From assembly GCA_037783545.1 (NCBI GenBank), contig JBBELK010000311.1, positions 620,001-684,000 on the forward strand: a DNA stretch of 64,000 nucleotides, read 5' to 3'. Position numbers and translations under genes: made by a program. The notes under the pieces were generated by a model. It had not been told where the DNA came from, searched no databases, and was given only the letters and a program-made list of their open reading frames with translations. Below, in pieces: positions 1,468 through 62,819 of the stretch. Numbering within the stretch: position 1 is the stretch's first letter; the number at the start of each line of letters is the position of its first letter. The DNA comes from Henricia sp. BOLD:AAB3569. Lineage: Eukaryota > Echinodermata > Asteroidea > Spinulosida > Echinasteridae.

Positions 1468-1583
1468 CTGTTGTGTAGTGTGCACCATCCGCAGTACGGG
1501 TCGCCATCTTGTCCTCCAGCGTCACCAATACAAGAGTTGCAGCTTTTGTACTGGCTACAGTTCTCTACCCTCAATCTTAAAAA
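1468..1583 (-). CDS. Gene A exon: PSI domain 1, first half
   Basis: 116 bp, phase 0 to 2: [20 protein letters not shown], then [14 protein letters not shown]. Acceptor catgtacag|TTTTTAAG, donor ACAG|GTATGT. The next exon, expected to continue RC....C as in gene B, is not found between 1 and 1467 and must lie to the left of the window. Confidence 0.87.
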
Positions 1584-6666: not shown

Positions 6667-6795
6667 CTGTTGTTCTGTGAGTATGTTTATAAGCTTCATC
6701 TGTTCGTTGAGGCTGATATCTGTTAGTACTGGGCTGGGTCTAGCCAGCTGAACAGTCTCGTAATGTCTGGCAGCTGTACCATTCTCAATGTGAAC
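6667..6795 (-). CDS. Gene A exon: end of Sema domain
   Basis: 129 bp, phase 0-0, 43 residues [20 protein letters not shown] ... ILTEQQ. Acceptor attgccctcag, donor CAG|GTACGT. Same length, phase and near-identical sequence as gene B exon 61448-61576. Confidence 0.87.
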
Positions 6796-7647: not shown

Positions 7648-7848
7648 CTTCAGCAATGTACCCTGTGATGTGCCAATGAAAGCGACTGTGTGATTCATCT
7701 CAATGCTGGTCACTATTGATGACATGCGAGTTCCTTCCAGCTGAAGCAATGGGATTGCTGGAACTCCATCAGAGTCACTGCCTCTGGCGTACGTGTATGC
7801 ACCATTCGGTACGCACAGCAATGCTCTGTAATCTGCCTCTGCAGGGTC
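7648..7848 (-). CDS. Gene A exon: Sema domain, penultimate part
   Basis: 201 bp, phase 0-0: DPAEADYRALLCVPNGAYTY, then ARGSDSDG and [18 protein letters not shown]. Acceptor cctttttgcag, donor AAG|GTGAGA. Counterpart of 62619-62819 in gene B; even the intron sequence upstream of its acceptor (7850-8130) is alignable with 62825-63090. Confidence 0.88.
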
Positions 7849-40619: not shown

Positions 40620-40965
40620 TCAGTTGGAAAAATAAGACTGGGTTATTTTCTGTCGCTCATCAACATCCACTGTTTCATCCTTTTCTTGACCCCATCCGAT
40701 GACTTCCATTGGAATGTGGTGGCTGTCGCCCTTGGTTGCACATTCCACAGTAGGCTGGAGATAACTAGGCTCGTTGCAGTAAGCGGCTCCAGAGATCGAT
40801 GCTGGGCCGTCAACCTCACTCGATGCATTCCAACCCCCGGGTTTTACTCCTGGAGACGAGTCATCATCCAACACAGCGACCAGACGGTCAAGCTCCTCAA
40901 CTATCTCTCCGAAAGAGCATCGCATCTTCGGCGAATCCATCCAGCACTGCTGCATGATTTCAGAT
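40620..40965 (-). CDS. Gene B terminal exon: end of kinase and C-tail with stop
   Basis: 346 bp, entered in phase 2, ending at TGA (40620-40622). [20 protein letters not shown] is the last kinase helix (CW..P..R.SF). About 80 tail residues follow. [15 protein letters not shown] contains YCNE (YxN, a GRB2-type SH2 motif) and YLQP (YxxP/YxxQ-like). This echoes the bidentate docking site of MET, but the exact MET motif YVxV is absent. Family knowledge plus inference for the docking roles. Confidence 0.9.
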
Positions 40966-43900
40966 CTGAACAAAAATATCAAAAAATAAGACATATTATG
41001 CTACAAGGTTTATTATAATTTTCATTGCAAAATGCACGTACGACAGTATTGGTGTCCCTAATCCGACTGTCAGAAGATTCCTGGCAGATACAGGCATTTA
41101 TTTTTCATCCATTCCCGAATTTAAGCCTAATCGCCGCGATTACAGCGATTTGTCAGTAAATCAAGGAATAGTTTTTGGCTGCCTTGTGATGATTCTCTCA
41201 TCAGTTCGCTCGGTGCAAGATCGTAACAGTTTGGATAGCCCTGACGATTGTCGGGGTAATTCAGGAACAAATTGTTGTATTCGTAACCAATGATGGATAT
41301 TCCTACATAAGCTACCAATTTATTTTACTTTAAAAATAAAGAGGACTGCAGGGTCGAGTTTGGTCGCAATGTTTAATGACAGCCTTGCACATTTTAACGT
41401 ACTGAACGCGCCCTTGCAACCCGTTATCATCCACAGGGGCAAGGACAAAGAAAGCGGTTTAATCGCACCCAGCATATAGCGCAGCACTGTTGCATCCTCG
41501 TTGCCAACCCGTTGCTACTTTTAACAGAACGAAGCACAGCATGTAATGTGTACAGGTAGCCTATTCTTTACGTACAGTTTCGGTGGAGATAATCCTGGCG
41601 GATCCATGCGTCTCCCTTGCTGGAGAAAATCGTAGACGTCCCTGTTACGAACCCCTGGATATGGCTGTCGACCTCCGGAAAACAGCTCCCACAGAAGAAC
41701 ACCGTACGACCACTGGGGAAATATTTCTCATAAATTGGCATTTTTTCTGTTCATGAATGCTGCAAATTAATTTTAATCAGTAGGGAAAAATTGTGAAACA
41801 TTCTTCTTCCATAGTGAGCCTCCATGCAACAACCTAGAGAACAGAATGCATGTAACTGTTTTGAGTGTGACAATATTTGGGGTGTTATGGCCGAGCGGTC
41901 TAGTGCGTCGAACTTAAGTTCCTGTGCTAGTACTAGAATTTAGGTTCGATTCCTGGCCGTGACGGGTTGTGGCACCTGTGCCCTTGAGCAAGGTACTCAA
42001 CCACACTTGCTCCCATTCCTGTAATTGGCGGTCCCTCCGCTGTTGGATGTGGTATATAAATAAAATAAAATAAATAAAATAAAATCAGTTGCGTCGGCGA
42101 GAGCAGTCCTAAACAAAAAAGTATCGTTCCTCCTGGTGACAGTGTTGGTTGAAACCACGATCTTATACAGGGAGACCAGAGGGAGTACACTTAAATGCAT
42201 CTTATCAGAGGTTTTGGGTTCGAAATCCAATGAGAGCCATTTGATTTTTCTTTCACCCCACATTGTGTATTTGTGAAAGTGACAACAAAAACAATGTTGT
42301 GCATTTTTCTTAACTCCTTGGCACCAGACGATGGCAACATAGTCGCAGCCTGGCAGTTGAACTTACCTACATGTGTAACAGAACACCGTGTGACTGTTGG
42401 ACCAATTTCCGGCAAGATAAACCCATCCGCAAGGGGTTAAGCATGATTCAGCCCCATGCAGATTGGGCGATTTTTAGTGCCACGAAAAGCTATGCAAAAT
42501 TCGATAAAACGGTCCAAAAGTATAACATGTTACTCAAATGTTTCTTCAAAATGTTGTTAGTAATGTCTTTTCATGGCAAGACTAACTTGCACAAGCCTTC
42601 TTAAAATTTCGCTGAGGCAATTCCACCATAAGTGCCAAATGGTGTGCCTGATGTACCTCTCTGACTGGGCTCGTGCACCCCGATCGAGGGCCGTTTGAAA
42701 GTGTGGCTCCAGAAGTCAGTTTAACCCACGCAGGTTCAATCAGGTTGAAAGCCGAACAAAATGGGTTTTCTGCAGAGAGCCCTTAACCACAACATTCTCC
42801 CATAAACAGGAAATGTCACACTTCATTGCTGTGGGAATCACTTTAGTTCTTTTTGGGTAAAGTATACAAAAATTCAAGGCACGTCTAGCCTTGTCCAAGG
42901 CTAAGAAATTGTGTGAATCCGTGAATAATTTGCCTGTATGCTATTCATATGTATGCTATGCGCGGTGAATTGTATTCAACTGCCAAATAGTCTGGTTACC
43001 ATAATATCTTGGTCTGAATCCTGACTTCACGGACGAGGCTGGATCATAGCCTTGTTTTTTATGTACTTGATTTCTTATTTGTTTCTTTATAACTGCGTTG
43101 GAAATCCGACGCAATTACTTTTGCGAAACCCGAGTGCTTATAAATATTCATATCTTACATAATATCCAATCAGAGCTCACTACTCGGGTCAAATGGTGCG
43201 TACGTGACCGGTTAGCAAGCATAAACGTTTGTACGTCGTACATTTTATGTAGGCCTGTCTGCAGGTGGTCTGATGCAATTATGGCGACATCACACGTAGT
43301 GTTACAACTGAGGAAATCAACGGTAGTTTGAATTATGCAGCCTACAAATTGCAAATTGATGACTTTCACGAAGACCAGAAGATATCCCTCACATATTTTC
43401 TGTGAAGGTATGACGTATTTGTGAACTTACCAACTAGGTATAGGCTACGTACGGAAAATCTGCTATTTTTCAAACGGCACCGTATTGCTCTGTCAAAACA
43501 ACGGTTAACCAATGAGCTTTTACGTCTCGGTGCTCTCTTTGAAAAAATTAGCATAAGAGTCCCCGCCCATAAAACACATAAAGAACAAGGCTATGATCCA
43601 GCCTCGTCCGTGAAGTCAGGATTCAGACCAAGATATTACGGTGACCAGACTATTTGGCAGTTGGCTACAATTCACCGCGTGGTGGCGCACTTTTGCTGCA
43701 TAGCATACCGGCAAATTCTTCACGGATTCACACAATTTAATAGCCTTGGACAAGGCTAGGCACGTCTCGCTTCATTTGAGAGTTCTAACTTTGTACTTTA
43801 ACTCACCACGTCTGTTTTCATGTTATACACCTTTCGTTCCATTGACTCCGGTGCCATCCACTTCACTGGCAGTTTGGCCTGCTTGTCTCCACTTGTGTAA

Positions 43901-46900
43901 TAATCCGACTCATCCAGATCCCGAGATAATCCAAAATCCGCTATCTTTGCTGTCTCTTTATCATCGATCCTTGTATTCAATGGGAGAAAACCGATAAATG
44001 TGATCTGCGACAAACTTTATTGTTTCTTGAATAACAAGATTTGGCGAATTTAGCGTTTGGGCTTTTCTAGGGCTACTGTACAGTTTTCTCTCGCGCGAAA
44101 CAAACTGACCAATCCAGCGAGTCTTTAATATTGTCTTTATTTGAACAATTTTAGGTTACAGTTGTAGAAATCAAACCAAATGTGTGAAAATAACAGTCCT
44201 TACATGCAGTTTCTTGCTGCTAAATCCCTGTGGACGAAATTTCGATCAGAAAGGTACTTCATTCCGCGAGCTATGTGCAGGGCAAACGTCACAAGCTGTC
44301 GCACTCTCGGATTCTACAGTGGGATTATGTCAATATTTGCAGGAACATCAGTTACATAAAACTGACATTATCCTAAATCAAGAAGTATATAATATTTAAT
44401 ATTTAATTTAATATTTATATGTATTTAATGTTAATGTTTATATATTGCAAGTACATGTAAAAATTGTATTACCCAACAAAAGGGAAATGATAAATCATAA
44501 TGCAAATTTCAGTTGAATTTACTTATCTCTTCAAGTAAAGTCATTTTAAAACGAAATAAGAAGCGAACTTCACAAGCTTATTATTTACCTGTTTTCGTTT
44601 CACTATATAGGACTTGAGATCACCGTTTGCCATAAAGGGAAGAACAATCAGGGGCTGACCGTCGGGGTCAAAAGTCAGACCGAACAGTCCGAGTACGTTG
44701 GGATGATCGAAGTTTTTCATCATTAACCCTTCCTCAAGAAATTTTATGACGTTGCGTGAATCACTTGCATCTGAAATTAACAAATAATACATTCCATTTT
44801 GTTTCCGTACAAAGATTTAATCAGTCATAAATAGCTGAACATTTAAGACAAGAATCAAAGATCCCTTTCCATCCTCTGGATGTTTAAAGAAAGATATAAA
44901 GAGAGTTGAATATAGTGTGGGTACACTTCTAGAACTTTACTATATAGAACCTTGTATTGTCTTGACGGCCACTTGACGCTCAGATCCAGATGACGCCGCG
45001 TTCATAGTCGCCTGGTATACTATCCCAAAAGCACCTGGGTTTATTGAATGAAACAGAAACGAATAGCTCTAAAAAAAAAAACAGTGGTAAAATGTGCATA
45101 TTTCTGGCCAGTATGGAATGTGCTCGGAAAACACCTAGTTTTTTGGAGAACCTATAATAGGAGAGCAACAATTTCAAATGCAAAAAAAAAAATAGCACCA
45201 GGTGCAAAAACGCTCATGGCTCTATTGTTCTCTCCCTTGTTCTACATGTATATAGAGAAGAAACACGGAAGAGTTTAGTGACTTCAAGTTATATTATAGG
45301 CTTAACTGTACGATACGACGGAGGGCAAAACAATAACAAGAAACAACTGATACGCACCCTGCCCAAGGACTTTCCCCATGTCCAGCTGACTGAATTTGAT
45401 CTGCAGGTCGCCTGGCACAATGCTTATATTGGCATTCAAAGCAACAGTCTTCCCAGGAATGACCGGTGGACGTTGTTCATCTGTACTGCCAAGCGATCGC
45501 CGTCTCCTTTCTGCAGGAGCTTGTTGGTCTATAAGAAACAAACACGCCGGAGATTAAAGTGCATCCATATAGCGACACACCCGAACAGTGAACGCTTCCG
45601 AGCGTTCGCTCCTGTAAAACTCATCATCGCCAATTATAATATATTTATAACGGAATGGATCTTGGTATTTCGCATTACGTGTTAAAAGTGAACAGTTAGT
45701 CCTGTGAAAAAAATGTGGCATCGTACTATACCTTCATGAAGTTGTCGTATCAGAGATAAGAGGCGCTCGTTGTATGTCCTCACAAGTTGCTTCTGCTTAT
45801 TGTATTTGAACGCGAAGACCACTAGGAGAGCCAGCAAGGGAACCCCAACTATTGGAACGACGGTTGCCAGGAGGATAGTCAAAATGTTGCTGGGATAAAT
45901 CACCTTTCCGGCGGTAAACGTTTGGTCGGTATACCAGTGAACCTGCAACGACAGGGAAAACAGTTGCCTCAATTTATTTATCTGAAGAAAAAAAACGAGA
46001 GGTAAATTAACTGGGGAAATCGCAATTGTTTGCCTGTGACAGTTTTCTATTATTAACCTGGTGATATCTCAGCAGTGTGCAAAAAGCATATTAATTAAGT
46101 TAGAATGGTTCAGGAGCGTATATCAAAAGAATGTCAATAAAGTAATGAGGGAATAATCTTACAACAGCTGATGGTCGTATGCTCGTATCGGGTTTGCCGT
46201 GTGCATCCAAGCCAGGTGGTTCATTCTCCGGAAGCACACAACTAATGAGAGTGCTAAAAAAGTTTTTAATCGTACAATTCTCGCTGCCAACCTTCACGTA
46301 TATCTCCGTTTCATCCAATGCATCATCGAGCCTCTTACCCTGTCACAGACAAAAAAGAGACGGAAACTTTATTTTACCGTTAACCTGAAAATCAATCAAA
46401 AGGAGGCACAAACTCAAAAACACGACAATCAGGCAGCGACAGTTGGCCGTACAGGCACTGCATTCACGTCACAGTTTGAGCATGCAAGGTAGGCTTGCTA
46501 CCGGGTTAGGTACTATTATTGAATCTGCCTATACTATACACAACCATACCACAGTCAACCTGGGATGGCTGCTAAGTTGATAGATAGTAATATACTTGGG
46601 CAGTATGAGAGACGTAGATCGCTCTTTTAGTAGCGTATATATTTTTTAAGGGTATAAAAAAAGTACGTACGGTGCATCATACTTACTGTGATTTGTAGAT
46701 TGTTCCCGGAGTTACTAATTTCAAACTGGCCATTATCAAACGTGTTGAATTCTGGATCCTGACAATAACTAAAGTCACCGATTGAAAGCTCAAAGTCATC
46801 CATAACGAAGCCCGGAGTGAATGTATTTGTCTCGTTTATTGGAGGAGACCTACACTCCATGGACGAGTCGCTTTCTATACTACATGCCTGTTACCAAGAG

Positions 46901-49900
46901 AAAATACATGCTGGTAAAAAGTCAAGTTAATATTTGGCAACATTCTAAAACCTTGACATTGCCGTACGCGAGGCGAAAATCCATGGCTGTAGTGCGCAGC
47001 GTGAAAGGTGGGCTGACTTTGCAGTACATTTACATGTAACTATGCAGCAAAAGTAATACACGATCAAAGGGCGGGAAATCCTTTGTCCATATTTCAGTGG
47101 TGGCATTAAGATTCCACAGGAAATTCCACATGGTGTACAACCAAAACATGAGTAGCAGGCTCACTGCTACCAGTCTGTGAATGAGACGCGGGAAAAAATA
47201 TGCTTGTCAGTGAGACTAGCAAAATAACTACTTACCACTTCATCAGATGTCTCTTGGCCATTTCGAACAAAGATTCTTGCTACTTGCACAGATGAAAAAC
47301 CAGTACCGTTAACTCTCAGTGTCCTGCCGCCACTATATGACAGAATGATATATTAAAATGAAAAGAGGTACACGACAGTCGGGCGAACATTGGGACTCGG
47401 GGCATTTGTCTGAACAGAAGTAGAGCCTACGGAGAAGCCTCTTCTCATGAAGCACTTGCAATAAATATATTCACCAGCTGATTTTGCAGTACATGTACTG
47501 TATATTTAACAAAATTTATTTAACAAATAAAGCCTCTTCTCATAAAGCACTTACAATAAATATATTCACCAGCTGATTTTGCACTAATATATTTAACCAA
47601 ATTTATCTGCACCCGGTGCCGCTTACCTTTGATAACTTTTACGAGGTTGTACATCCAATACAGAGGGGTTTTCCTTAAAAGTAAACAATTCTGCTGATGT
47701 TCTTATAGCTCCGTCGAATATCACTGAAATTGACCCGGTATTGTCTTGTATTGACATTCCAGTGCGGCATTGGAGAGAGGAAATGCTGTGTATGCAAGAA
47801 AGATAGAATGTCCCAAAGATTTCATACCTGTATAAAAGGCCAGTGGTCAATTTGCGGCTTCAGGGGTCGATTTCACCAAACTCTTCGTAAGTTAAGGTCA
47901 ATAATAAGGCTTGCGATGGATTCTAGGGCTGCGATGGATCGTGGCTACGATAGGTGCTGCGGTGGATTTCACCAAACCTATCGTAAGCGTGATGCGTTCG
48001 ATTATCGATTAAGGATATTTGCATATTTACTCTGAGGCTGTTTGCTGTGCTAAATTATGTTTTTAATAAAACGGTCGTTGGCTACACGAGTTCAAAAGGT
48101 CCCCGTGTCCGTTCTGACAGTTGAAGTCAGAAGTATAAATACATGTACACCACTACCATCGTCATCACCCAAAATGGTAAACAGGTCTACCCGAACTATT
48201 GCAAGGTTACAAGCTACACCCAACACAAAAAGCTATATAGTTCCCGCCTAATACCTTTTGATGCAACTCAAAAACTATTTTATTGATTTTTGTCATTTAA
48301 AAAGCGACGTGTGAGTGGTTTCCTTTGGCCAGTACAAACCGTTTTAACTAGTAAGAAATCACGCATTTTATGGAATTTTGCGCCAAAACAGAAGTTGCAC
48401 TTTTGTCAATATGTTCAATTTAACACACTAAAAAACTGTTTTCTGGCCATTACCCCTTCACATAACTTCAGTTAAGTAACAGAGTGCTTATCTGCAAGAA
48501 CTGGTTGATAATGAGTGGGTCCGCCATCTTTTGCAATCACCTCAAGACATTATTTGCGCATGCTGTTTATCAAACTTCGAATGCGCTGCTGATAAGTTTG
48601 CCCAGACCTTCTGTAAAATGTGTACTTGTAAATCCTGCAAAGAAGCGTCGCCATTCACTTATTTTTGGCCTTCCGCTTAATGTCGTCCTAGAGGTTCTCT
48701 ATAGGATTGCAGTGGTGACTTGGATTTACATGTGTATATCTTTTTCAATGTCTTTTCTTCCTGTACAAGACTTTGTCATGCAAGTCAACATCACTGCAGA
48801 TGCACTGTCATGTGGTATTACATAATCACACTATAAAATAAATGTCTTGCAGATAGGCACTTTGTTACTTAACAGAAGTTACGACCAGGGGTAACAATGG
48901 CCAGAAAACATTTATTTCAGTGACAAGAGTGAACAATATTGATAAAAGTGCAACTTCTGTTTTGGCGCAAAATGTCATAAAATGCGTGATTTCTTTGTGA
49001 AAACGGTGTTAACTGGTCGATGCACACGTCGCTTTTTGAATGACAAAAATCAATAAAATAGTTTTTGAGTTACCTCAAAAAGTATTAGACAGGAACTAAC
49101 CTTTTGTGTTGGGTGTATGTTTTAATATAAGTACTGCATGCACGTGAGGAATTCCACAAAATCAAGAATTTAGTAAAGACTGTTACAAAAATGGAGTAAG
49201 CACACCAGTTTTAACACTTGGCTGCATACAGTTGTATTTATACTTCTGACTTCAACTGTACGTTTCCCTTTAATAAATATGAAAAGACTGAATGCGTGCA
49301 AATTGTACTCACCTGCTCTGGATAATATGGCATGCAACATTCGTTCCGACAACAGCTCGAATGTTTCTCCCCGTGTTCAGATCACTTCCTGTAACATTGA
49401 TCAGGGTTCCACCAGCTTCAATTCCCATAAGGGGACTGAAACCGCCAATCGTGGGATTCTAGGGTAATAGAGAATGATGTGCTTTAAAACTAAACCAATT
49501 CACCACACGTTCATGCGAAAATACGAACACTATCAATCTTTATAAGTACATCTGCAGCCCGTCCCATGCTGGCAGAGGAAAGATTTCCGGAAATTGTAAA
49601 ACTTTTGCTTTGGTACACATTTCACAACTTATACGCACATGTCATTATGAAGGGACTCAATATTGAGGTACATATTCACATTAAAATTCATGACTTTCTC
49701 TTTTCCACAAATATACAGTCAGATATCCATTAAAATCTATATAAGAAACGGAGGCCGTTCGCGCATAACCGGGCCTTCTCATTACCATATTTATAGCCAC
49801 CTTCATTTGCATACTTTTTGGCACTATTTGCATAACTATTTGCATACCTTTGGGCACATTTGCGTGGTTTGGGCCATCTCATTTGCATGATTTTGGGCAC

Positions 49901-55900: not shown

Positions 55901-58900
55901 GTTGCGCAACTGCTTATAATAACAATATTATTTGATATGATGAAATAACGAAATGTAGGATGAGGAAAAAATAACATGGTGCAAATATATTGCATTCGCT
56001 ACTCATTGTTCGGCTATAAACATTTAAAGAAAATACAGTAAATTATATAGATAATATATAGTGTGGCAAATGTACATGTATAACCTCGTTGTATAGCCAG
56101 CAGTCATCGATTTTCAACGTGTGACTTACCTATGAAGTTATGAATATCGTCCAGCTGTCTGTTGCCATTCCAAACCACCTTCAATAACGCATCAAACGTC
56201 TGCTCTGTGGCGCCATATGTGTACTTTGAAAGGAAGGAAAAGACAGAATCCAATAGGAGCTTATAATGTATCGATACATTTCATTAGTCTAAGAATGCTT
56301 CAAAGTATTCATCAGTTTACGGTGCTCATTAATGACAAAAACACGAATTTATCCAGTCAATCCTCAACGTACCAATCGACTGTCACACTGGATAACATCA
56401 TTGGGCATCAATGTTGCTGTAGTGGTTTGTTCATCACCATCCACACTCAGGGAACATTGGTACTGCTTTGTAAACCGAAAATAAAAGGAACGATTTATTA
56501 CATGCACTAATTATGTCTATGTGTGTATAGTTAATAAATGTGCCTAAGTAAGTCTATTTGCTCCCCAACAAAACTTACCAAAAACATTTTATGTGTGAAA
56601 TAGGAGAAAAAAAACTTGGAGATCCAAACACGTGTTAAGTGAATTTATCTATAATGTCTATAATGTGTCATTACCATTTACCAATCCTTTATTGTACCAA
56701 TAATTGTTTTACCATTTCCAATTGGAATAATGCTTGTACCATTTCCTCTCTAAAAATTTAAACCTTGTGAGGTATAGCACAACATAACTCACGAACGTGT
56801 TTGTCTTGGATCAGTACAAAATATGACAAACATCTGTGCAATGTTTTACCTGACTTGGGTAGAGCAAGTTGACGGCGTTGACGGAGATAATGCTAGGGAT
56901 GCCAACCGGCACAAGCACCTCCCTCGTCTGGGGTTGCAACTGTGGACAGAAGGACTGTCCTCGCATAATGGACGCATCGGGATTCTGCAAATGTGCACAA
57001 AGTGGAAGTTTATTCAGCAAGTTGTGACCTGTGCTTATTTCCCGAAACTTCGCATGCTTCATGTTATTGATTCATTGTTGATAAGACAAGCCAAGCCAGG
57101 CGCTAACATCCAAAGGGGGTGGATGTGGGGGTGGGGGTGGGCTCAAAACCCATCCCTGCTCTATCTGACACCAACAAATCAATGTAATGCATTTTCTGTG
57201 TATCCCCCTATCCTCAACGAGCTGACATACGAAATCTGACTGGCAAAACCCCTCCCATGGTGGCAAAACCTCTCCCTAAATTACTGGATCCGCCCCAGAC
57301 TAAACATTTTATACACCGCAATACAGTCAATATTTTCACTATTCCATTGCATGAATCCTTGAAAGAAGCGATGACGTCTTTGAATTACATTATCTCCTGT
57401 GACGATGTAGCTATCTCCCTGACTGCACTCTTCACTTCTGTGGGTGCACCTGTTGTCGTACACACACCAATCACAATCCCAGTTGCTTGTAACACACGGT
57501 GTACACCTTCGATAAAGGTAAAAGAAATGCTTATACAGCTCCATATCACGAATCTCTTAAAGAACTGTTCCATATTTTCCACACTGACACCGCTTATAAT
57601 ATGGCAAAAACTAAAACACACAGTACATTTAAATATCTCAACATTTCAAGTTTACGAATGAGATAATGAAAAGAACGGTGCGTCTTTATTTGAATCATGA
57701 CAGTTGATTTGAATCGTCAAAGCTTGTTTATGGAGAGTTACACCTTTTTGGGCACCAGACACACCACTTAAAAGTCCAAAAGGAAGGAAATTGTCCCATT
57801 GTTGCAAACACACCTATTGGTCGAAAACAACGCGCGCAGTTCGCCTCTAAGTGCGCGCGGTCGTACATGTATGCAAAGTATCCCTCATATTTTTTGTGAA
57901 AAACCGTGACCATCAGAATTATGTGTCTACATCTTAAAGACATGTTTAATTGAAAGACTTACGAGGAGTGTCTGGAACAGTCATAGAAGTTGAAAATTAC
58001 AGATACAAAGTTGATGTCAGTCTCGGACGAAAACACACTCAACCGCATCCCAACGTGGTCTTCTGCAAAACAGTTAGAAAACAGCAAGTTGTCAAATGGC
58101 AAAGAGTATATTTAATTTCACCCTTGAGTTCAGCGGAAGAAATTGATAAAAAGGAAAACTGTGATGCATTTCTAACAACATATAATCACATCATGCACAT
58201 CATAATGAATGACAACAATTGTAAAGGTAAATTACCTATTGGTGGAATTGATGGTCTGTCCCCCGTATCTGGAGTCCTACACTGTATAGTGTTGCTGTTG
58301 GTCGTTCCTGCAGACCGTGGTAGATCATCGAATTGACAGCTGTAGGATTCTCCGTCCTTAAGGTTCGGAAGCTGGTCTACTGTCAGTGTGATCTGTTGGT
58401 AAATGATTGAAAATCGATCACTGTACTCAAAGTGTCTTTATACACAGAGGCAATCGTTTCTATCCTTTCCACCAATATGGGTAAAGCGGTACTATAGGTC
58501 ATCGGAAATTAGAAGAGTCCGTATTTTATATTATGGTGCCGATAAATTATTTAGATACGAAAACAGAATTTATTCCGATAGAAATAAAATTACGTTAAAA
58601 TTGGTGAAAGCGTCAGTATTACGTGTATAAACTACGATATTCAAACATTGCTTGTGTATGTAATAGGAAGGTCACAATAATCTGCCTTTTTCTATGTTAC
58701 TTTTTATGAAAACTGGCAGACTACGGTGTAGTTCTTTGATTGACGCGTCATCAAGTGAAGACGATGTACGCTACCATTTGGGATGGATCTGTTATTGCCA
58801 AGTTCTTGGGGTCTGTCTGATTGATGTCCACGCATTGTGCAGCATCGTATGGTAACCAGCGACTTGATACAGAAGCCAACGGACACTCACTGTGTCTGGT

Positions 58901-61900
58901 ACACCTGTATGGCAAAAAGCAACGAATCGGTAGAGAGTTAACTTATGTAGCCTATAATAGGTTCATAGATTTTTTTTCTTTTTATAGACACAACATTTGG
59001 TTCGGTGGGATTGGAGTTTAAACGCAATTTTGTATTTTGCCTGACTTTACACATGTTTGGTGCGAAATCCGTTGCCTCCAAGATAATCAGGTTAGATCGC
59101 TATGAACTGCCGGCCCCTTTCCCATTATACATAATTGAACGGGAATGCACATGAAAACATACACACGTTAAGTGACCTGTCACGACGAAATGAGCGTAAA
59201 GTCGCACTCCGCTGTTTCCTACATAATGACGGGTTAAAAGTCAAAATTTAAGAAGGTCGTTTTTCAGGGTTTTCTAATGTTTAGAAATCAAATTTCATTT
59301 GATTCCAATTTTAGCGTCATTCAACAATTAAAAACATCATTTTCAGACCAATTTTGACGATAGCTTTCTTCGTAACCCGTAGAAAATTTTGTTTTAAGAT
59401 TTGTAAGATTTGTTTGAAGACTACCACTTCTCCAAGCGTGTTGTGTTAGGGGAATAGTTTTACCTTATGTGTTATATATCATTGCAAAGCTCTTTTTATG
59501 CTGAATTTAAAAATACCAACATCCAATTTTTCAAAATTCCGACTTTACGCTCATTTCGTCGTGACAGGTCACATATTATTGCCGTGATGTTGTATAGGCC
59601 CACGTGCAGCATGTTGTCTTAATACCTCTTTTGTAGTGTGCACCATCCGCAGTACGGGTCGCCATCTTGTCCTCCAGCATCACCAATACAAGAGTTGCAG
59701 CTTTTGTACTGGTTACAGTTCTCTACCCTCAATCTTAAAAACTACCAAAACAATGACATTTAACCATGCAACACGGAGAGAAGAATTGGGTCCATAGGGA
59801 AAACCTGATGGTGTATACCAACTGTGCCTTATAGCTCAGCTGGTAGAGCATCTACCTAGTGAGCCAGAGGTCTCGGGTTCGAATCCTGATAAGGCCCTTA
59901 CCGGTACGTTTCATTTAAATGATGATCAGGCACCATATCAGATGTTGTGTTCAACATTTGTTCCTAACAGAATAGCTACCTTTCAGTGCAATGTATTTTT
60001 AAGTTAACAAACATTACGCTGATATAATTTGCATATCAAAATTACAATTGGACACACTGTATACGACATTTCCGTTTTTAAAGTTTGTAGAACGCTTAAT
60101 GTGTGTCACAAAAAGTGGAAAGTTTCAGTACGTCTGGTGGGTATAGAACTGTTACAGTACTCATTACCCAGAAAGATAATTTTAACGGAGCTCCTGTTCG
60201 GGCAGCGCGTGATTGCATTAACCCAGTCTAGAATAGCACCCAACATCACCAGACCTAAAATATCAATTGGTTGTTTTTATTGCAAGTGCTTTGGTCACAA
60301 TTTTTGAATGCAAACACTCGCCGTTCTCAAACATGCAGAATATGTGCAACACTTAAAATACATTCTTAAAGACGACTGATGCAAGCCACTTAACGATTAA
60401 ACCTATATACTTAACACAGACCTATTTTGTGTGCATTTATGTTGTAAATTAAATAACACTACATGTATTTTCAAAAAGTAAAAGCTTGTACCAATTGAAA
60501 TAGTTCGTACCTCGCACAAATAAATGCCAACAACACACGAAGTCGATCAGTTATCACGAGTGAAAAAAATATTACTGAATTATATTTTTATATGAAAATG
60601 TATAGATGAGAAGCCTTCAGGATCTGAAGGACATCCAGAAAAGAAAGGTAAAGAGGAAGAAACTAAAAGGGACTTTTTTCCTTTCAAAAGACCTGTCAAC
60701 CTAATTGATACAAATTTGATTCAGGAAAACAAATGCCAGAACTCAAATCGGAAAAAAATGTGAACTGGATGGAAGGCTCTTCACTTGTGGAGTTGGTTTT
60801 TTCTAAACAATGACAATTTTTATACACATCTCAATCGGCTTATAATCACCATTGTGTGTCACAAATAGGCCTGTACCCGGTACGATATGTCAATTATCTT
60901 ACTCAAGTTATCGACCGTTGTACAATTGTTTAAAAAAAAAAATTCTTCGTTACGTAATGTCGTGGGTTTTTTAAAGACTACCATTCAGGCTCAGAAGTTT
61001 GTCACTGTAGCAGTGTATATCCGCTACTTGAGACTGTCGCTTGAGACTTGTGATCGATTTCCCGTAACTGGCATGTCAAGATACAGAAGCATTACGACAT
61101 ATATAACTTTTCTATTTTTTCATTGAATAGAAAGATTTAGCCGTTTGATTCTCTAAAAAATAATTGTGCTTGTTGCACGATAGTGACCACAGAACATTTG
61201 GCCAAAGTGTGTGCTTTTGAACCATGTGTTCAAAAGCAAATTTTGAATCCAATGTTGTTGTTGTTGTTTTTTTTTTACATCAATGTTTTTAGTTTAGAGG
61301 CTCGTGTAAATTATTTCTCGACGCGTGTTGGGTTTATAGTGCATCGAAATATTGCTGCGCACACCGTGTGTAAGCGATTGGAAAAAAAACTGTAAGGTGA
61401 AATTGACTCTTAAACTCTTCGGACAACAGATATATGAAGGAAATTACCTGTTGTTCTGTGAGTATGTTTATATGCTGCATCTGTTCGTTGAGGCTGATAT
61501 CCGTTAGTACTGGGCTGGGTCTAGCTAGCGGAACAGTCTCGTAATGTCTGGCAGCTGTACCATTCTCAATGTGAACCTGAGTTTAATGCAATAGACACAA
61601 TTATTCTGGTCATGCTTAAAAATACCTCATGCAGGAATAAATATAAAAGGCACATTGGGAATGGGTATTTTTTTGGTTCAGATTGAACACTGATTTTGGT
61701 AAATTAATATATTGGAATCGATAGCTTATTCAATTCTAAGATATACTCGGAAATGTTGCATAAGTTCTTAAATAAATATATGATAAAATTACTGCATAAA
61801 TTAGTAATGCACAAAATTAAGGCGCGAGCGGTCCGTGCGTAAGCGAAACGGCAGAGGACGCTGCGTACATGTGTGAATGGTTATCTTGTGCACTGAATTT

Positions 61901-62819
61901 GTTTAAAGAGAAAATGTGATTTTTCTACAGAAAGCAACATTTGCGACAAAAGTGGAAAGTATATCTTAGAATTAAATAAGCTATACATGTGAGTCATTCC
62001 ATAAATACGGGATCCAGTGTCCCCCTTACGTCATGACACTTCCGGAGTTGATTTTTATACATAACCTCAGCATAATCGAACAACACCTTTGCCTGTTAAT
62101 ATTACCCAAAATATGACGAGAATGATTCAATAAACTGGTGCGATCTTCTATAAATGCAAGTGTGACATTTTGAAATTTATATTGAAGAATTATTGAAATT
62201 TCGCTCATAATATATTTGAATTTATAAGGTACTGGTTCTACAGGTGGGTAAAACCAGAAGCTACCTTTTCCAGAAAGAACCTGGTCAAAAAGACTTTAAA
62301 TGCAAGCGTAAGAATTTAAAAATGCCTTGGTGTCTCCACTTACGTCGGTAAACAACTTTCTTAAATATTTTCAAAACATGACCAAGACATGTCTAAATGT
62401 TTGGAAAATGTTTCAAATATCATACACTATTCAGAAATTGCACGGATATTTCTTCAAAATATTTTGGTAACTTGAAATGGCCATTTTTACAAATGCATCA
62501 AAATGTCACACGTTGGCCCCGTATTAAATCCGTGTTCAATCTGAACGAGAAACAAAAAATACCTGAGAAGGTTACGTGTTAATCGGTTACAAATGGAAAT
62601 GTTCAATATAAATCTCACCTTCAGCAATGCACCCTGTGATGTGCCAATGAAAGCGATTGTGTGATTCATCTCAATGCTGGTCACTATTGACGACATGCGA
62701 GTTCCTTCCAGCTGAAGCAATGGGGTTGCTGTAACTCCATCAGAGTCACTGCCTCTTGCATACTTGTATGCACCACTCGTGTCGCACTGCAATGCTCTGT
62801 AATCTACATATGCAGGGTG
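40620..62819 (-). CDS. Gene B: plexin-ectodomain receptor with MET-type tyrosine kinase (26 exons, 5' end outside window)
   Basis: Joined exon model of a single-pass cell-surface receptor tyrosine kinase, about 1305 residues inside the window. Counting from the first visible exon: rest of Sema 1-110, PSI1 about 114-170, IPT1, PSI2 about 273-317, IPT2, PSI3 about 424-484, IPT3-IPT6 about 485-838, membrane helix about 858-883, juxtamembrane, kinase about 960-1230, C-tail to 1305. All 26 exons have GT-AG borders and compatible phases, and no stop interrupts the joined frame, which is strong evidence for one transcript. The first coding exon (about 359 residues in paralogue A) must lie beyond 64000. 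By family knowledge the Sema/PSI/IPT region binds a semaphorin- or scatter-factor-like ligand and the kinase autophosphorylates in trans; the ligand is not inferable. Vertebrate MET/RON has one PSI and four IPTs; this gene has three PSIs and six IPTs as in plexins, but no plexin GAP domain. Exon coordinates follow as separate entries. Confidence 0.9.
41576..41712 (-). CDS. Gene B exon: kinase C-lobe
   Basis: 137 bp, phase 0 to 2: [20 protein letters not shown], then [20 protein letters not shown]. With the previous exon it forms [17 protein letters not shown]......LQ.GRR is the usual C-lobe pattern. The preceding 2.1 kb intron holds the hAT-like element at 42886-43758. Acceptor tttccccag, donor AACT|GTACG. 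Confidence 0.9.
41880..42090 (+). mobile_element. tRNA-Leu-like SINE in a gene B intron
   Basis: ggtgttatggccgagcggtc (A box) and aggttcgattcctgg (B box), class II tRNA-like. Then cttgagcaaggtactcaacc, and a tail of (aaata)n at 42055-42088. Different subfamily from the 19846 SINE. Confidence 0.65.
42886..43758. mobile_element. 873-bp hAT-like non-autonomous element
   Basis: An exact 8-bp duplication ggcacgtc (42878-42885 and 43759-43766) flanks ends TAGCCTTGTCCAAGGCTA. Long inverted ends (about 170 bp) include ttgtgtgaatccgtgaa and gcctcgtccgtgaagtcagg. No transposase. An 8-bp duplication is typical of hAT elements. It lies in the intron between the DFG exon and the next kinase exon of gene B. 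Confidence 0.8.
43807..43969 (-). CDS. Gene B exon: kinase DFG, activation loop, APE
   Basis: 163 bp, phase 2 to 0: [20 protein letters not shown], then [20 protein letters not shown] and [17 protein letters not shown] is intact, and the twin tyrosines sit where MET has Y1234/Y1235. [11 protein letters not shown] keeps a canonical APE, where human MET has ALE. Donor GTG|GTGAGT. Confidence 0.93.
44204..44313 (-). CDS. Gene B exon: kinase catalytic loop (HRDLAARN)
   Basis: 110 bp, phase 0 to 2, short enough to escape ORF calling. It reads [20 protein letters not shown], then [17 protein letters not shown]. It holds the catalytic aspartate of HRD; ARN is typical of receptor tyrosine kinases, and RNCM is shared with MET. 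Acceptor ccactgtag, donor CAT|GTAAGG. Confidence 0.92.
44589..44770 (-). CDS. Gene B exon: kinase N-lobe, alpha-C helix and hinge
   Basis: 182 bp, phase 1 to 0: [20 protein letters not shown], then [20 protein letters not shown] and [30 protein letters not shown]......PL.VLP.M..GDL is diagnostic of the MET/RON kinase group. It contains the alpha-C glutamate and a leucine gatekeeper. Acceptor taatttcag, donor CAG|GTAAAT. Confidence 0.92.
44951..45034 (-). CDS. Gene B exon: kinase glycine loop and VAVK lysine
   Basis: 84 bp, phase 1-1, missed by ORF searches because it is short. It reads [20 protein letters not shown], then QVAVKTIQ. With the previous exon this completes GxGxFGxV, and VAVK supplies the ATP-binding lysine. 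Acceptor aaacccag, donor CAAG|GTTCTA. Confidence 0.88.
45358..45528 (-). CDS. Gene B exon: juxtamembrane and start of kinase
   Basis: 171 bp, phase 1-1: [19 protein letters not shown], later [20 protein letters not shown] and MGKVLGQG. It ends inside the glycine-rich loop. The run just before the loop resembles the MET segment ALNPELV...VVIG...L. No DYR-type Cbl site (MET Y1003) is visible. RRRRS may be a basophilic phosphosite. Donor CAGG|GTGCGT. Confidence 0.87.
45732..45942 (-). CDS. Gene B exon: transmembrane helix and inner juxtamembrane
   Basis: 211 bp, phase 0 to 1. About 19 extracellular residues ([19 protein letters not shown]) precede the hydrophobic helix [25 protein letters not shown], with the basic stop-transfer KYNKQKQ next. 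Then [17 protein letters not shown] reads like the short amphipathic stretch that follows plexin membrane helices. Donor GAAG|GTATAG. Confidence 0.88.
46163..46339 (-). CDS. Gene B exon: IPT6 (last extracellular IPT)
   Basis: 177 bp, phase 0-0: [20 protein letters not shown], then [22 protein letters not shown]......E..V.VG...C........ISC..P is the membrane-proximal IPT pattern. Acceptor tctgtgacag, donor GTT|GTAAGA. Confidence 0.86.
46687..46887 (-). CDS. Gene B exon: IPT5 end and IPT6 start
   Basis: 201 bp, phase 0-0: [20 protein letters not shown], then [20 protein letters not shown] and [20 protein letters not shown]...GFVMD.........Y..DP.F matches plexin IPT5/6, where GFVMDNV is conserved. 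Acceptor ttggtaacag, donor ACA|GTAAGT. Confidence 0.87.
47236..47332 (-). CDS. Gene B exon: IPT5, part 1
   Basis: 97 bp, phase 2 to 0: [20 protein letters not shown], then [20 protein letters not shown].......R is the plexin/MET IPT signature. Acceptor tgtcatatag, donor GTG|GTAAGT. Confidence 0.86.
47437..47625. repeat. Two 95-bp tandem repeats
   Basis: Units start gcctcttctcat at 47437 and 47532 and share aataaatatattcaccagct. Intronic. Confidence 0.7.
47627..47785 (-). CDS. Gene B exon: IPT4, part 2, into IPT5
   Basis: 159 bp, phase 2-2: [20 protein letters not shown], then VIFDGAIR and [23 protein letters not shown]....G.I.V..D.......F.F..NP.V..V.P ends one IPT and begins the next. Donor AAAG|GTAAGC. 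Confidence 0.85.
48118..49258. mobile_element. Tc1-like MITE interrupted by another palindrome
   Basis: Outer ends cagttgaagtcagaagtata / tatacttctgacttcaactg, TA on the right (49259-49260; the left reads GA). The terminal CAGTTGAAGTC is very close to the terminal repeat of salmonid-type Tc1 elements. Interrupted by 48217-49115. A fragment of the same element is at about 54035-54180. Confidence 0.65.
48217..49115. mobile_element. 899-bp palindromic TA-flanked element
   Basis: Ends CACCCAACACAAAA / TTTTGTGTTGGGTG, flanked by TA (48215-48216, 49116-49117). Arms of about 290 bp (tttattgatttttgtcattt, aacagaagttgcacttttgt) enclose about 320 bp. The related sequence at 54110 (cagctatgttttt) is the uninterrupted site. 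Confidence 0.75.
49313..49458 (-). CDS. Gene B exon: IPT4, part 1
   Basis: 146 bp, phase 0 to 2: [20 protein letters not shown], then [18 protein letters not shown] and [13 protein letters not shown]...GGT.I.VTG..L is a textbook IPT start. Acceptor attaccctag, donor CAG|GTGAGT. Confidence 0.88.
49800..49925. repeat. Short repeats with five ATTTGCAT octamers
   Basis: Octamer ATTTGCAT starts near 49804, 49825, 49838, 49881 and 49905, usually followed by tttgggcac. Intronic. Whether POU factors bind is unknown. Confidence 0.55.
50083..50316. repeat. 234-bp direct repeat, copy 1
   Basis: Reads identical to 51228-51461 by eye over its full length (gaacttatttgctgggcg ... gtcattgtgatgc). 50122-50408 also looks like a MITE, with inverted agacctttatcacggtgcg / cgcaccgtgatgaaagtcc ends. 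Confidence 0.75.
50398..51227 (+). pseudogene. LINE reverse transcriptase, 5' part (frameshifted)
   Basis: Plus strand, two frames switching near 50810. Frame 1: [20 protein letters not shown], then [14 protein letters not shown]. Frame 2: [20 protein letters not shown], then [25 protein letters not shown] (catalytic motif A) and [13 protein letters not shown] (motif B). Typical non-LTR (jockey/CR1-like) RT. The endonuclease and ORF1 are missing, so it is 5'-truncated. Dead: frameshifted and interrupted after motif B. Confidence 0.8.
51228..51788. repeat. Composite insert splitting the LINE
   Basis: 51228-51461 is the second copy of the 234-bp repeat. 51475-51783 is the trailer of the 20-25.8 kb array (ggcgaaggaatcaagatcgt to cggaacagccaataa), including its 3' hairpin. 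The LINE resumes right after with roughly 20 codons of RT lost. Confidence 0.75.
51789..53049 (+). pseudogene. LINE reverse transcriptase, 3' part and tail
   Basis: Resumes at catalytic motif C as [19 protein letters not shown], then [17 protein letters not shown] and [20 protein letters not shown] frameshift near 52128 leads to [15 protein letters not shown] and [20 protein letters not shown]. The 3' end carries aaatactaaatactaaatac at about 53030-53049, a short tandem tail as in CR1/L2-like LINEs. Confidence 0.75.
53050..53450. mobile_element. TIR element, GGTGACGAATACGG ends
   Basis: Left ggtgacgaatacggttacga; right cggtattcgtgacggtg, inverted. The interior has gataaccgtagtcaacgcgt. Abuts the LINE tail. 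Confidence 0.5.
54211..54337 (-). CDS. Gene B exon: IPT3, part 2
   Basis: 127 bp, phase 2 to 0: [20 protein letters not shown], later GHVSFTYT. This is the second sheet of an IPT domain, ending in the usual F.Y strand. A 4.75 kb intron carrying the LINE wreck follows. Acceptor gttttttccag, donor ACG|GTATAA. Confidence 0.85.
54462..54702. mobile_element. MITE of the GGGGCCAATTTCATGGCG family
   Basis: Ends ggggccaatttcatggcg / cgccatgaaattggcccc; gcttagcacaaa and ttgcttagcacag repeats inside. Same family as 13755-13996. Intron of gene B. Confidence 0.7.
55054..55208 (-). CDS. Gene B exon: IPT3, part 1
   Basis: 155 bp, phase 0 to 2: [20 protein letters not shown], then [17 protein letters not shown]. 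PxxGP..G.T.I.I.G.N.G..F.D...V.VG...C is the canonical plexin/MET IPT start. Donor AAAAAG|GTATTT. Confidence 0.88.
55485..55666 (-). CDS. Gene B exon: PSI domain 3
   Basis: 182 bp, phase 1 to 0: [20 protein letters not shown], later [18 protein letters not shown] and [14 protein letters not shown]...C..C.......C.WC...C matches plexin PSI3. The exon ends GAAACG|GTAAGG. An identical GAAACG|GTAAG sits 120 bp upstream inside the exon (boundary at 55605), also in phase 0, so an in-frame short form lacking 40 residues is possible. Confidence 0.88.
56130..56223 (-). CDS. Gene B exon: end of IPT2
   Basis: 94 bp, phase 0 to 1: [20 protein letters not shown], then [10 protein letters not shown]. The L.VVWNGN....D motif just before PSI3 is a plexin hallmark. 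Acceptor cctttcaaag, donor ATAG|GTAAGT. Confidence 0.86.
56373..56462 (-). CDS. Gene B exon: IPT2, part 2
   Basis: 90 bp, phase 0-0, 30 residues: [20 protein letters not shown], then DVIQCDSRL. It provides the Y.C....G......A......IQC strands of the IPT fold. Two adjacent AGs (aaag and aaagcag) are both in frame; I used the second. Donor TTG|GTACGT. Confidence 0.82.
56850..56984 (-). CDS. Gene B exon: IPT2, part 1
   Basis: 135 bp, phase 0-0: [19 protein letters not shown], then [15 protein letters not shown] and NLLYPSQ. Plexins show CP....P...I.VPVG....I.L...NL at this spot between PSI2 and PSI3. Acceptor catttgcag, donor CAG|GTAAAA. Confidence 0.86.
57389..57506 (-). CDS. Gene B exon: PSI domain 2
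   Basis: 118 bp, phase 2 to 0: [20 protein letters not shown], then [11 protein letters not shown]. The CxxC...CxWC.Y...CTH...C spacing is that of plexin PSI2. Donor is AAT|GTAATT, a weaker site, chosen because it ends in phase 0 and joins the next exon. Confidence 0.86.
57963..58062 (-). CDS. Gene B exon: end of IPT1 and first cysteine of PSI2
   Basis: 100 bp, phase 1 to 2: [17 protein letters not shown], then [16 protein letters not shown]. Plexins have the equivalent SV.F.FY.CS immediately before PSI2. Acceptor is ctgttttgcag, donor CTC|GTAAGT. The opposite strand carries a 128-codon open frame here that is only a shadow. Confidence 0.87.
58236..58392 (-). CDS. Gene B exon: IPT1 (plexin-type), part 1
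   Basis: 157 bp, phase 0 to 1: [19 protein letters not shown], then QFDDLPRSA and a later IQCRTP. This is the 'L..LP.L..G..Y.C.F ... I.C..P' pattern found between PSI1 and PSI2 of plexins. MET has no second PSI after it. Donor ATAG|GTAAT. Confidence 0.86.
58775..58904 (-). CDS. Gene B exon: PSI domain 1, second half, into IPT1
   Basis: 130 bp, too short to show as an independent reading frame. It completes an Arg codon (AG|G), then reads [16 protein letters not shown] and later [15 protein letters not shown]. In plexins the PSI1 tail runs RCxRxxxCxxA...RW...QCV in the same order, so the match is specific. Acceptor gccatacag, donor ATG|GTAGCG, phase 2 to 0. Confidence 0.87.
59172..59572. mobile_element. 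401-bp MITE, GTGACCTGTCACGACG ends
   Basis: gtgacctgtcacgacgaaat / atttcgtcgtgacaggtcac; the inverted ends run about 33 bp. Lies between the two PSI1 exons of gene B. Confidence 0.75.
59626..59741 (-). CDS. Gene B exon: PSI domain 1, first half
   Basis: 116 bp, phase 0 to 2. It encodes the cysteine-rich plexin/semaphorin/integrin start: [10 protein letters not shown], then [19 protein letters not shown]. The CGWC-T/V-L signature is typical of plexin PSI1. The paralogue exon 1468-1583 is nearly identical. Acceptor ttttggtag|TTTTTAAG sets the frame that joins the previous exon. Confidence 0.88.
59822..59897 (+). tRNA. tRNA-like sequence, probably a pseudogene or SINE head
   Basis: ctcagctggtagagc (A box) and gggttcgaatcc (B box). 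The acceptor strands gccttat/ataaggc pair, and the anticodon position would read AGT (Thr). The anticodon stem is badly mismatched, and with the standard offset the first acceptor pair fails. So a working tRNA is doubtful. Confidence 0.4.
59900..61447. other. Gene B intron; no gene seen
   Basis: AT-rich intron between the PSI1 and last Sema exons. No recognisable repeat or coding segment. Confidence 0.4.
61448..61576 (-). CDS. Gene B exon: end of Sema domain
   Basis: 129 bp, phase 0-0, 43 residues beginning [15 protein letters not shown] and ending NILTEQQ. It closes the Sema propeller. Paralogue exon at 6667-6795 differs at only three residues (Q to P, and KL to QH). Donor CAG|GTAATT. Confidence 0.87.
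62619..62819 (-). CDS. Gene B exon: Sema domain, penultimate part
   Basis: 201 bp, phase 0-0, 67 residues starting [12 protein letters not shown] and containing [25 protein letters not shown] and [15 protein letters not shown], the last blades of a Sema propeller. Acceptor is tttttgcag, donor AAG|GTGAG. It is the direct counterpart of gene A exon 7648-7848 (55 of 67 residues identical by eye); differences cluster in the first 25 residues. Confidence 0.88.

What the first reader, a model, noticed from the sequence alone, without database searches (positions are those of the whole stretch)
40620..62819. A full plexin ectodomain joined to a MET-type tyrosine kinase in one gene
Twenty-six minus-strand exons join without a stop or phase clash into Sema-PSI1-IPT1-PSI2-IPT2-PSI3-IPT3-6-TM-kinase. 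The outside is plexin in layout and detail: PSI1 CGWCTL, FYDCS before PSI2, VVWNGN before LYKC of PSI3, GFVMD in IPT5. The inside is MET/RON in detail ([39 protein letters not shown]). Vertebrate MET and RON lack PSI2, IPT2 and PSI3; plexins have a GAP domain, not a kinase. This could be the ancestral form from which MET was shortened, or a lineage-specific swap. I do not know of a description, but I could not search.
Basis: partly seen in the sequence, partly recalled or inferred. Interest (0 to 1): 0.92.

Follow-up and report, generated by a model that had tools for sequence, protein, structure and literature searches.

The report
Sea-star plexin head on MET kinase
This sea-star gene makes a cell-surface receptor with the outside of a plexin and the inside of a MET-type tyrosine kinase, a type described in 2019; what looks new is that one kinase tail carries several different plexin heads, each matching an ordinary plexin of the same animal.

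Summary
Twenty-six minus-strand exons (62819 to 40620) splice by GT-AG into one frame: end of Sema, PSI1, IPT1, PSI2, IPT2, PSI3, IPT3-6, membrane span, MET-type kinase. The window holds only the end of Sema; a 27th exon with start codon and the rest lies outside (C311:693819-692746). It is not an assembly join: nine of nine copies of this type keep the order.

The class is published: Met-LP kinases (PMC6374515, 2019). Relatives are annotated in Patiria, Acanthaster, Asterias and Amphiura.

New here, as far as my searches show: the 15 echinoderm Met-LP kinases tested form one clade (100/95), but 9 of 14 heads tested pair with a GAP-bearing plexin of the same species or genus, and one clade for heads is rejected. 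Here the head is 80-97% identical to a neighbouring plexin up to IPT3, then the match collapses at intron 13. A Met-LP on contig C84 carries a plexin-A-type head on the same tail. Best reading: one kinase tail, repeatedly re-headed by plexins. Ligand and signalling are inferred; no RNA evidence.

The parts
62619..62819 (-). Exon E1, Sema (late part)
   Evidence: Pfam Sema 28-93 of the window model
61448..61576 (-). Exon E2, end of Sema
59626..59741 (-). Exon E3, PSI1 (CGWCTL)
58775..58904 (-). Exon E4, end of PSI1, start of IPT1
58236..58392 (-). Exon E5, IPT1 (TIG_plexin)
57963..58062 (-). Exon E6, end of IPT1 (FYDCS)
57389..57506 (-). Exon E7, PSI2 (PSI_PlexinA-B)
56850..56984 (-). Exon E8, IPT2
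   Evidence: TIG_2
56373..56465 (-). Exon E9, IPT2
56130..56223 (-). Exon E10, IPT2 end (VVWNGN); phase-1 intron follows, where the contig C84 paralogue breaks
55485..55666 (-). Exon E11, PSI3
   Evidence: motif LYKC and position in the plexin-A4 alignment
55054..55208 (-). Exon E12, IPT3
54211..54337 (-). Exon E13, IPT3 end; last exon that matches neighbour plexin A closely (83%)
49459..54210 (-). Intron 13: closeness to plexin A ends here; holds a plus-strand retroelement
49313..49458 (-). Exon E14, IPT4; match to plexin A falls to 58%
47627..47785 (-). Exon E15, IPT4/IPT5
47236..47332 (-). Exon E16, IPT5
46687..46887 (-). Exon E17, IPT5 end (GFVMD), start of IPT6
46163..46339 (-). Exon E18, IPT6
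45732..45942 (-). Exon E19, membrane span and start of juxtamembrane; phase-1 intron follows, as in plexin A
45358..45528 (-). Exon E20, juxtamembrane and start of kinase
44951..45034 (-). Exon E21, glycine loop and VAVK
44589..44770 (-). Exon E22, kinase alpha-C helix ([11 protein letters not shown])
44204..44313 (-). Exon E23, catalytic loop (HRDLAARNC)
43807..43969 (-). Exon E24, DFG, activation-loop DYY, APE
41576..41712 (-). Exon E25, kinase C-lobe
40620..40965 (-). Exon E26, end of kinase and C-tail ([12 protein letters not shown]), stop
14291..15367 (-). First exon (signal peptide and most of Sema) of neighbour plexin gene A
   Evidence: plexin GAP exons of A at C311:587-564 kb
7648..7848 (-). 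Plexin A exon matching E1
6667..6795 (-). Plexin A exon matching E2
1468..1583 (-). Plexin A exon matching E3 (PSI1)

Best explanation
It is a Met-LP receptor tyrosine kinase of a sea star: a complete plexin ectodomain on a MET-family kinase, in one 27-exon gene. Shown: the gene structure in DNA; intact kinase motifs and a conserved tail; a neighbouring true plexin (gene A) with almost the same Sema-to-IPT3 head; one kinase clade with several different plexin heads. Inferred: recombination or gene conversion at introns, within mixed plexin/Met-LP clusters, repeatedly gives the same kinase tail the head of a local plexin. Inferred too: head-sharing means ligand-sharing, so one semaphorin would be read by a plexin (Rap-GAP output) and by a Met-LP (tyrosine-kinase output: ligand-bound dimer, phosphorylation of the DYY loop, tail tyrosines recruit SH2 adaptors).
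For: Structure. Same architecture in other sea stars and a brittle star. Identity to plexin A, aligned part of each exon: 80-97% in E0-E13, 58% in E14, 48% in E15, 46% in E18, no hit with E16, E17 or E19-E26; to the inverted Met-LP copy C 65-100% in all 27. Kinase tree: 15 of 15 echinoderm Met-LP rows one clade, 100/95. Head tree: 9 of 14 Met-LP heads lie in starred groups with a plexin of the same species or genus: this genome 100/100, Asterias 100/97, Amphiura 100/100, Patiria 98/95; one clade of 14 heads rejected, p 1e-4. Within this genome, first exons of four Met-LP groups pair with four different plexin groups, 100/99 or better. C84 Met-LP: head stretch 93.7% identical in DNA to a plexin on the same contig; collinear DNA homology to the window gene begins 23 bp before exon E11 and the phases fit. 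Kinase dN/dS 0.13 and tail 0.19 between B and C. A and B share 809 bp of upstream DNA at 95.3%, and 97-99% in the first 120 codons; B and C have 69% in the first 40 codons and 88-92% in the next 80.
Against: No transcript or protein evidence from this animal. The other species' Met-LPs are NCBI predictions that I did not check in DNA; P0003, P0008, P0018 and P0022 lack the first exon. The C84 chimera rests on one assembly; the C861 and C93:626k loci were not read through. Five of 14 heads (P0001, P0002, P0008, P0023, P0238) have no starred same-genus plexin partner, and P0001 (Patiria) and P0002 (Acanthaster) heads group together (94/86), so not every Met-LP was re-headed lately. Plexin donor versus Met-LP donor is not settled; the GAP tree only shows that A and Asterias P0021 are orthologous plexins. 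Nothing here tests ligand or signalling.
Confidence: 0.8

Rival explanations
1. Ancestral form: a bilaterian plexin-kinase with full ectodomain came first, and MET arose by losing PSI2, IPT2 and PSI3.
For: Echinoderm Met-LP kinases lie outside the Met+Lingula group (88/84, not starred), as an old lineage would. Met-LPs occur in echinoderms, Lingula and an unnamed transcript-like protein P0025. All true Met as one clade is not rejected (p 0.19).
Against: Heads nest inside echinoderm plexins, with one clade of heads rejected. Echinoderm plus Lingula Met-LP kinases as one clade: p 0.046, borderline. The TAM outgroup rows were not a clade, so the root is unsure.
Confidence: 0.1
2. Artefact: a plexin head gene and a kinase gene lie side by side, or were joined by the assembler, and do not make one protein.
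For: Intron 13 is 4752 bp and holds a retroelement. No RNA was seen.
Against: Nine of nine B-type copies (2 on C311, 7 on C93) have E0, then E11-E15 and E17-E19, then kinase exons E20, E25 and E26 in order. Phases fit at every junction. B and C are alignable in DNA on both sides of intron 13. Same architecture in annotated relatives.
Confidence: 0.04
3. Separate kinase captures: each lineage's plexin picked up the kinase once, independently, without later head exchange.
For: Junqueira Alves 2019 proposed two captures, from a Sema+PSI tree. Different breakpoints in different genes fit several events.
Against: A single kinase clade needs one kinase donor that is itself a Met-LP or a relative of it. 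In this genome the C84 gene shares PSI3 to tail with the window gene, in collinear DNA, but not the head, which looks like a head change on an existing Met-LP.
Confidence: 0.15

Closest known systems
Met-LP receptor tyrosine kinases (Junqueira Alves et al. 2019, PMC6374515)
   Same: Complete plexin ectodomain plus MET-like kinase; reported from the sea star Acanthaster (four genes, one beside a Plexin-B), an annelid and a mollusc.
   Different: Its tree rests on Sema+PSI and it proposes two origins; what I read (abstract, passages, section 11 part 1 of 2, sections 12 and 13) has no kinase tree and no head exchange. This assembly has about 12 loci with at least four head types.
MET / RON receptors
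   Same: MET-family kinase; activation-loop tyrosine pair; a tail with closely spaced tyrosines (MET side recalled).
   Different: MET lacks PSI2, IPT2 and PSI3. Sea-star true Met (P0276, P0306) is a separate gene whose kinase groups with hemichordate Met.
Echinoderm plexins with GAP (gene A, Asterias P0021, Amphiura P0139, Patiria P0122)
   Same: Ectodomain order; in this locus the first 14 exons and the phase-1 intron after the membrane exon.
   Different: Plexins end in a GAP domain; this gene ends in a kinase.

Membership tests
Met-LP RTK | Complete plexin ectodomain (Sema, PSI1-3, IPT1-6) | tested here: met
   Pfam and plexin-A4 alignment of the window part; Sema first exon outside the window
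Met-LP RTK | Membrane span and MET-type tyrosine kinase in the same reading frame | tested here: met
   Hydrophobic run in E19 seen by eye (no predictor run); kinase
Met-LP RTK | Made as one protein | not testable with these tools
   No RNA; the same exon order in 9 of 9 copies is indirect support
MET/RON RTK | Truncated ectodomain: Sema, one PSI, four IPT | tested here: not met
   TIG_2, TIG_plexin and PSI_PlexinA-B present; not found in one sea-star Met (P0276) and one lancelet Met (P0300)
MET/RON RTK | Kinase inside the Met clade | tested here: inconclusive
   Outside Met+Lingula at 88/84; grouping with echinoderm Met rejected, p 0.0017; root unsure
Plexin | Cytoplasmic GAP domain | tested here: not met
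   The five GAP hits on C311 all lie at 564-587 kb, in gene A; the window gene has kinase exons after its membrane exon
Plexin | Semaphorin binding | not testable with these tools
   No binding data; sequence only

The most novel reading that the evidence does not exclude
Sea stars (and brittle stars) run a head-swapping system: one MET-family kinase tail is repeatedly fitted, by recombination at introns, with the ligand-binding head of whichever plexin lies in the same cluster, so the animal keeps GAP and kinase versions of the same receptor head and can read one semaphorin in two ways.
Probability: 0.6. Interest if true: 0.75.

Novelty: new member of a known kind. Interest (0 to 1): 0.6.

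Why it matters
The 2019 paper left open what Met-LPs bind and concluded from Sema+PSI that they arose twice. If heads are exchanged with local plexins, trees of the head cannot count origins, and the ligand question becomes directly testable: express the plexin and the Met-LP with near-identical heads (A and B here, or the C84 pair) and ask whether the same semaphorin drives both. It would be a clear natural case of receptor output being changed while the ligand-binding part is kept.

Tried and rejected
Gene finding: the first exon chain (too strict) found five exons; looser settings found most but added false exons (for example 57275-57108 and 59963-59902), replaced by hand after reading the sequence. 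The first C84 chain missed head exons and was redone by hand; its start codon was not seen and probably lies just outside the fetched stretch.

Considered and dropped: 'MET shortened from Met-LP' as first choice (see rivals); an assembly join (see rivals); calling contig C311 a haplotype copy of C93 (the B/C pair resembles C93:352k/380k, but C311 has plexin A where C93 has another Met-LP), left open. Species: not identified. The head tree puts A, B and C with Patiria and Acanthaster Met-LPs (99/98) before Asterias, so a sea star on that side.

Results against a tidy story: P0001 and P0002 heads group together, and P0008, P0023 and P0238 have no starred same-genus plexin partner. B and C sit together inside the A-B-C head group (92/76), so no A-B pairing is shown over E1-E13; the E0 tree does not resolve A, B and C (80/40). 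Kinase one-clade test for echinoderm plus Lingula is borderline (0.046). One of the seven C93 B-type copies has a stop in its first exon. Before C84:439392 there are five short matches to B (99-292 bp), all to non-collinear non-coding places. For the C93:626k locus only three kinase exons (74, 80 and 60%, the last two with stops in the stretch) were listed and no last exon. Asterias plexin P0138 has a head grouping with P0136 but a GAP grouping with P0130: plexins may swap heads too, or a model is wrong.

Row choice: the kinase tree used 52 rows and the head tree 41, out of 315 proteins held; of 18 Patiria Met-LP proteins listed, six went into the head tree and five into the kinase tree. Rows with under half of a segment were left out (34 of 41 kept for E0, 40 of 41 for IPT4-6). 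Gene A is not in the IPT4-6 tree because only its head had been modelled. The AU groups follow the kinase/GAP label, set before the trees, except the six-row subfamily test.

Full report
WHAT IS THERE. On its minus strand 26 exons from 62819 to 40620 splice in frame, every internal junction AG/GT, into 1306 aa with one stop at the end. The gene's 5' end lies beyond the right end of the window: tblastn with the Patiria relative finds the missing Sema exon at C311:693762-692752; read out, it starts with ATG and a signal peptide at 693819 and ends at 692746 with a phase-0 donor that fits exon E1. The whole protein is 1664 aa. Pfam sees Sema, PSI, TIG_plexin (IPT1), PSI_PlexinA-B (PSI2), TIG_2 (IPT2), further TIG domains, and a tyrosine kinase. 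By sequence the nearest solved ectodomains are plexin-A chains, and, apart from a two-kinase EGFR construct, the nearest kinase chains are MET, then RON and MER.

IT IS A KNOWN CLASS. Protein search returns the same architecture in the sea stars Patiria miniata (53%), Acanthaster planci (53%) and Asterias rubens (52%), the brittle star Amphiura filiformis (41%) and the brachiopod Lingula (34%). Junqueira Alves et al. 2019 (PMC6374515; I read the abstract, passages, part 1 of 2 of section 11, and sections 12 and 13) named such proteins Met-LP, found four in A. planci beside one Met, noted that Plexin-B1 and Met-LP1 lie next to each other there, inferred from a Sema+PSI tree that Met-LPs arose twice, and left the ligand open. 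'Met-LP' with 'plexin' occurs in that paper alone in the held open-licence library. By their listings, the other eight literature searches gave no other description of the class and none of head exchange; two of them listed only part of the papers found (20 of 67; 10 of 158).

THE NEIGHBOURS. Gene A, a plexin with GAP exons at C311:587-564 kb, starts inside the window: its first four head exons are at 15367-14291, 7848-7648, 6795-6667 and 1583-1468. Gene C, a second Met-LP in the opposite direction, runs from 728469 to about 769050. Against A, the window gene B is 80-97% identical (aligned part of each exon) in E0-E13, then 58% (E14), 48% (E15), 46% (E18) and no hit with the other exons; against C it is 65-100% in all 27. 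In DNA, B and C align across introns from E1 to the 3' flank; B and A align mainly in exons from E2 on. At the 5' end the order reverses: B and A share 809 bp of upstream DNA at 95.3%, a further 1888 bp into E0 at 90.4%, and 97-99% in the first 120 codons, where B and C have 69% in the first 40 codons, 88-92% in the next 80, and no match in the flank next to the gene. Synonymous distance A-B is 0.095 in E0 but 0.273 in E1-E13; B-C is 0.199 and 0.121. So I infer at least two layers: an older sharing of the head up to IPT3, and a recent exchange at promoter and first exon.

MANY COPIES, SEVERAL HEADS. Searching the genome with the kinase, the first exon and E11-E19 gives nine B-type copies (two on C311, seven on C93). 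All nine have the first exon, E11-E15, E17-E19 and kinase exons E20, E25 and E26 in order; the short E16 was listed in five of nine. One C93 copy has a stop in its first exon. Further Met-LP loci: C84 (first exon 419.5 kb, kinase 447.8-451.7 kb), C861 (237 kb, 302-310 kb) and, less complete, C93 (626 kb, three kinase exons at 603-598 kb). That makes 12 loci in the assembly; haplotype copies are not excluded. In a tree of 31 first exons, the four groups of Met-LP pair with four different plexin groups: B-type with A (100/100), C84 with the C84 plexin (100/100), C861 with C861 plexins (100/100), C93:626k with the C34 plexin (100/99). That these first exons belong to plexins is inferred from GAP exons further on in the same contig and strand; only A was followed exon by exon. 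The other three Met-LP first exons are 33-40% identical to B's, while their listed kinase exons match B at 60-92%.

THE C84 CASE. The C84 Met-LP was read through: exons E0-E10 are plexin-A type (39-46% to the best plexin by segment, Patiria P0181 or, for E8-10, hedgehog P0165, where B is 23-40%), and from E11 on it is 78-91% identical to B. Its first 1242 bp match the C84 plexin at 93.7%. Collinear DNA homology to B begins at C84:439392, 23 bp before the E11 acceptor at 439415, and goes on to the end. The E10 and E11 phases fit. It could be an assembly error, but the head differs from the C84 plexin by 6%, more than allelic if the near-equal GAP scores of C84 and C1480 show allelic distance. 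C861 looks alike by positions only: first exon nearest C861 plexins, E11-E19 exons 59-79% to B.

OTHER SPECIES. Kinase tree, 52 rows: 15 of 15 echinoderm Met-LP kinases form one clade, 100/95, apart from true sea-star Met (P0276, P0306), which groups with hemichordate Met. Holding echinoderm Met-LP with echinoderm Met is rejected (p 0.0017); with Lingula Met-LP it is borderline (p 0.046). Head tree, E1-E13, 41 rows: 9 of 14 echinoderm Met-LP heads (B, C, P0003, P0004, P0010, P0016, P0017, P0018, P0022) lie in starred groups with a plexin of the same species or genus; starred branches force five label changes in asteroids and three in ophiuroids, and one clade is rejected for all 14 (p 1e-4) and for the 11 asteroid rows (p 2e-72). 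IPT4-6 tree: B, C, P0002, P0003 and P0008 form a clade without plexins (100/99), while P0001 goes with plexin P0021 (94/89). By segments, the switch from plexin-like to Met-LP-like falls after E13 in B, C and Asterias P0003, after E18 in Patiria P0004 and Amphiura P0018 and P0022, after E19 in Patiria P0001 (whose E17-E19 are closest to plexin P0021) and, in C84, at E10/E11. In gene A the membrane exon ends in phase 1, as E19 does, so kinase exons and GAP exons hang on the same kind of intron. The GAP tree puts A with Asterias P0021 (100/100): orthologous plexins whose heads nevertheless group with their own lineage's Met-LPs.

HOW IT MOST LIKELY WORKS. Shown: kinase motifs [21 protein letters not shown] and the DYY pair are intact; between B and C the kinase (dN/dS 0.13) and tail (0.19) are conserved while Sema E0 (0.61), IPT4-6 (0.68) and the membrane region (0.92) change faster. 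Inferred from plexin and MET biology (recalled): the Sema head binds a semaphorin, dimerises or clusters the receptor, the kinase phosphorylates its loop, and tail tyrosines ([12 protein letters not shown]; YxN is a Grb2-type motif, recalled) recruit adaptors. Because heads are shared with GAP-bearing plexins, the likeliest role is a kinase read-out of plexin ligands; the 2019 authors also thought semaphorin ligands conceivable.

LIMITS. No RNA. Other species' models are unchecked predictions. Taxon choice was mine. The direction of each exchange is open.

Noticed in passing
window 50802-52129 (+): Reverse transcriptase pieces (RVT_1, 7.9e-18 and 0.0008) inside intron 13, on the opposite strand.
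   Followed up: partly
window 59825-59897 (+): tRNA-like match (Rfam RF00005, 39 bits) in the intron between E2 and E3; gene or tRNA-derived repeat not decided.
   Followed up: no
G000:C93:212001-213071 (+): A first exon of the B type with no kinase, GAP or E11-E19 hit downstream on its strand before the next gene: perhaps an orphan or secreted head.
   Followed up: no
G000:C93:47622-48483 (-) and C93:273457-274530 (-): A broken first exon with stops, and a full-length one with a stop: decaying copies or errors.
   Followed up: no
G000:C311:699249-718150: Large inverted repeat between the head-to-head genes B and C (main arms 91.7-96.6%).
   Followed up: no
P0025 (1654 aa, 7538-base contig, source 'lgn', species unknown): An uninterrupted Met-LP-like protein (two PSI stretches, TIG_2, kinase) whose ectodomain is nearest plexin-A proteins and whose kinase is nearest sea-star, lancelet and mollusc Met: perhaps a further independent Met-LP, and transcript-like.
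   Followed up: partly
P0080, P0087, P0090, P0256, P0268, P0272, P0273, P0036: Met-type kinases in ticks, a spider, mites and a horseshoe crab group beside lophotrochozoan Met (100/99), against the 2019 statement that none are detectable in Ecdysozoa.
   Followed up: partly
P0271 (Branchiostoma belcheri): Predicted protein with integrin-type domains and a Met-like kinase (46% to the query); real fusion or bad model unknown.
   Followed up: no
P0003 (Asterias rubens): NCBI calls this Met-LP 'plexin-A4-like'. A 2026 proteome paper (PMC13409769, passages seen) reports 'plexin-A4' in A. rubens coelomocytes; whether that is this kinase could not be told without an accession.
   Followed up: partly
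P0138 with P0130 and P0136 (Asterias plexins): Head and GAP trees disagree for P0138, so plexins may exchange heads among themselves too, or the model is wrong.
   Followed up: no
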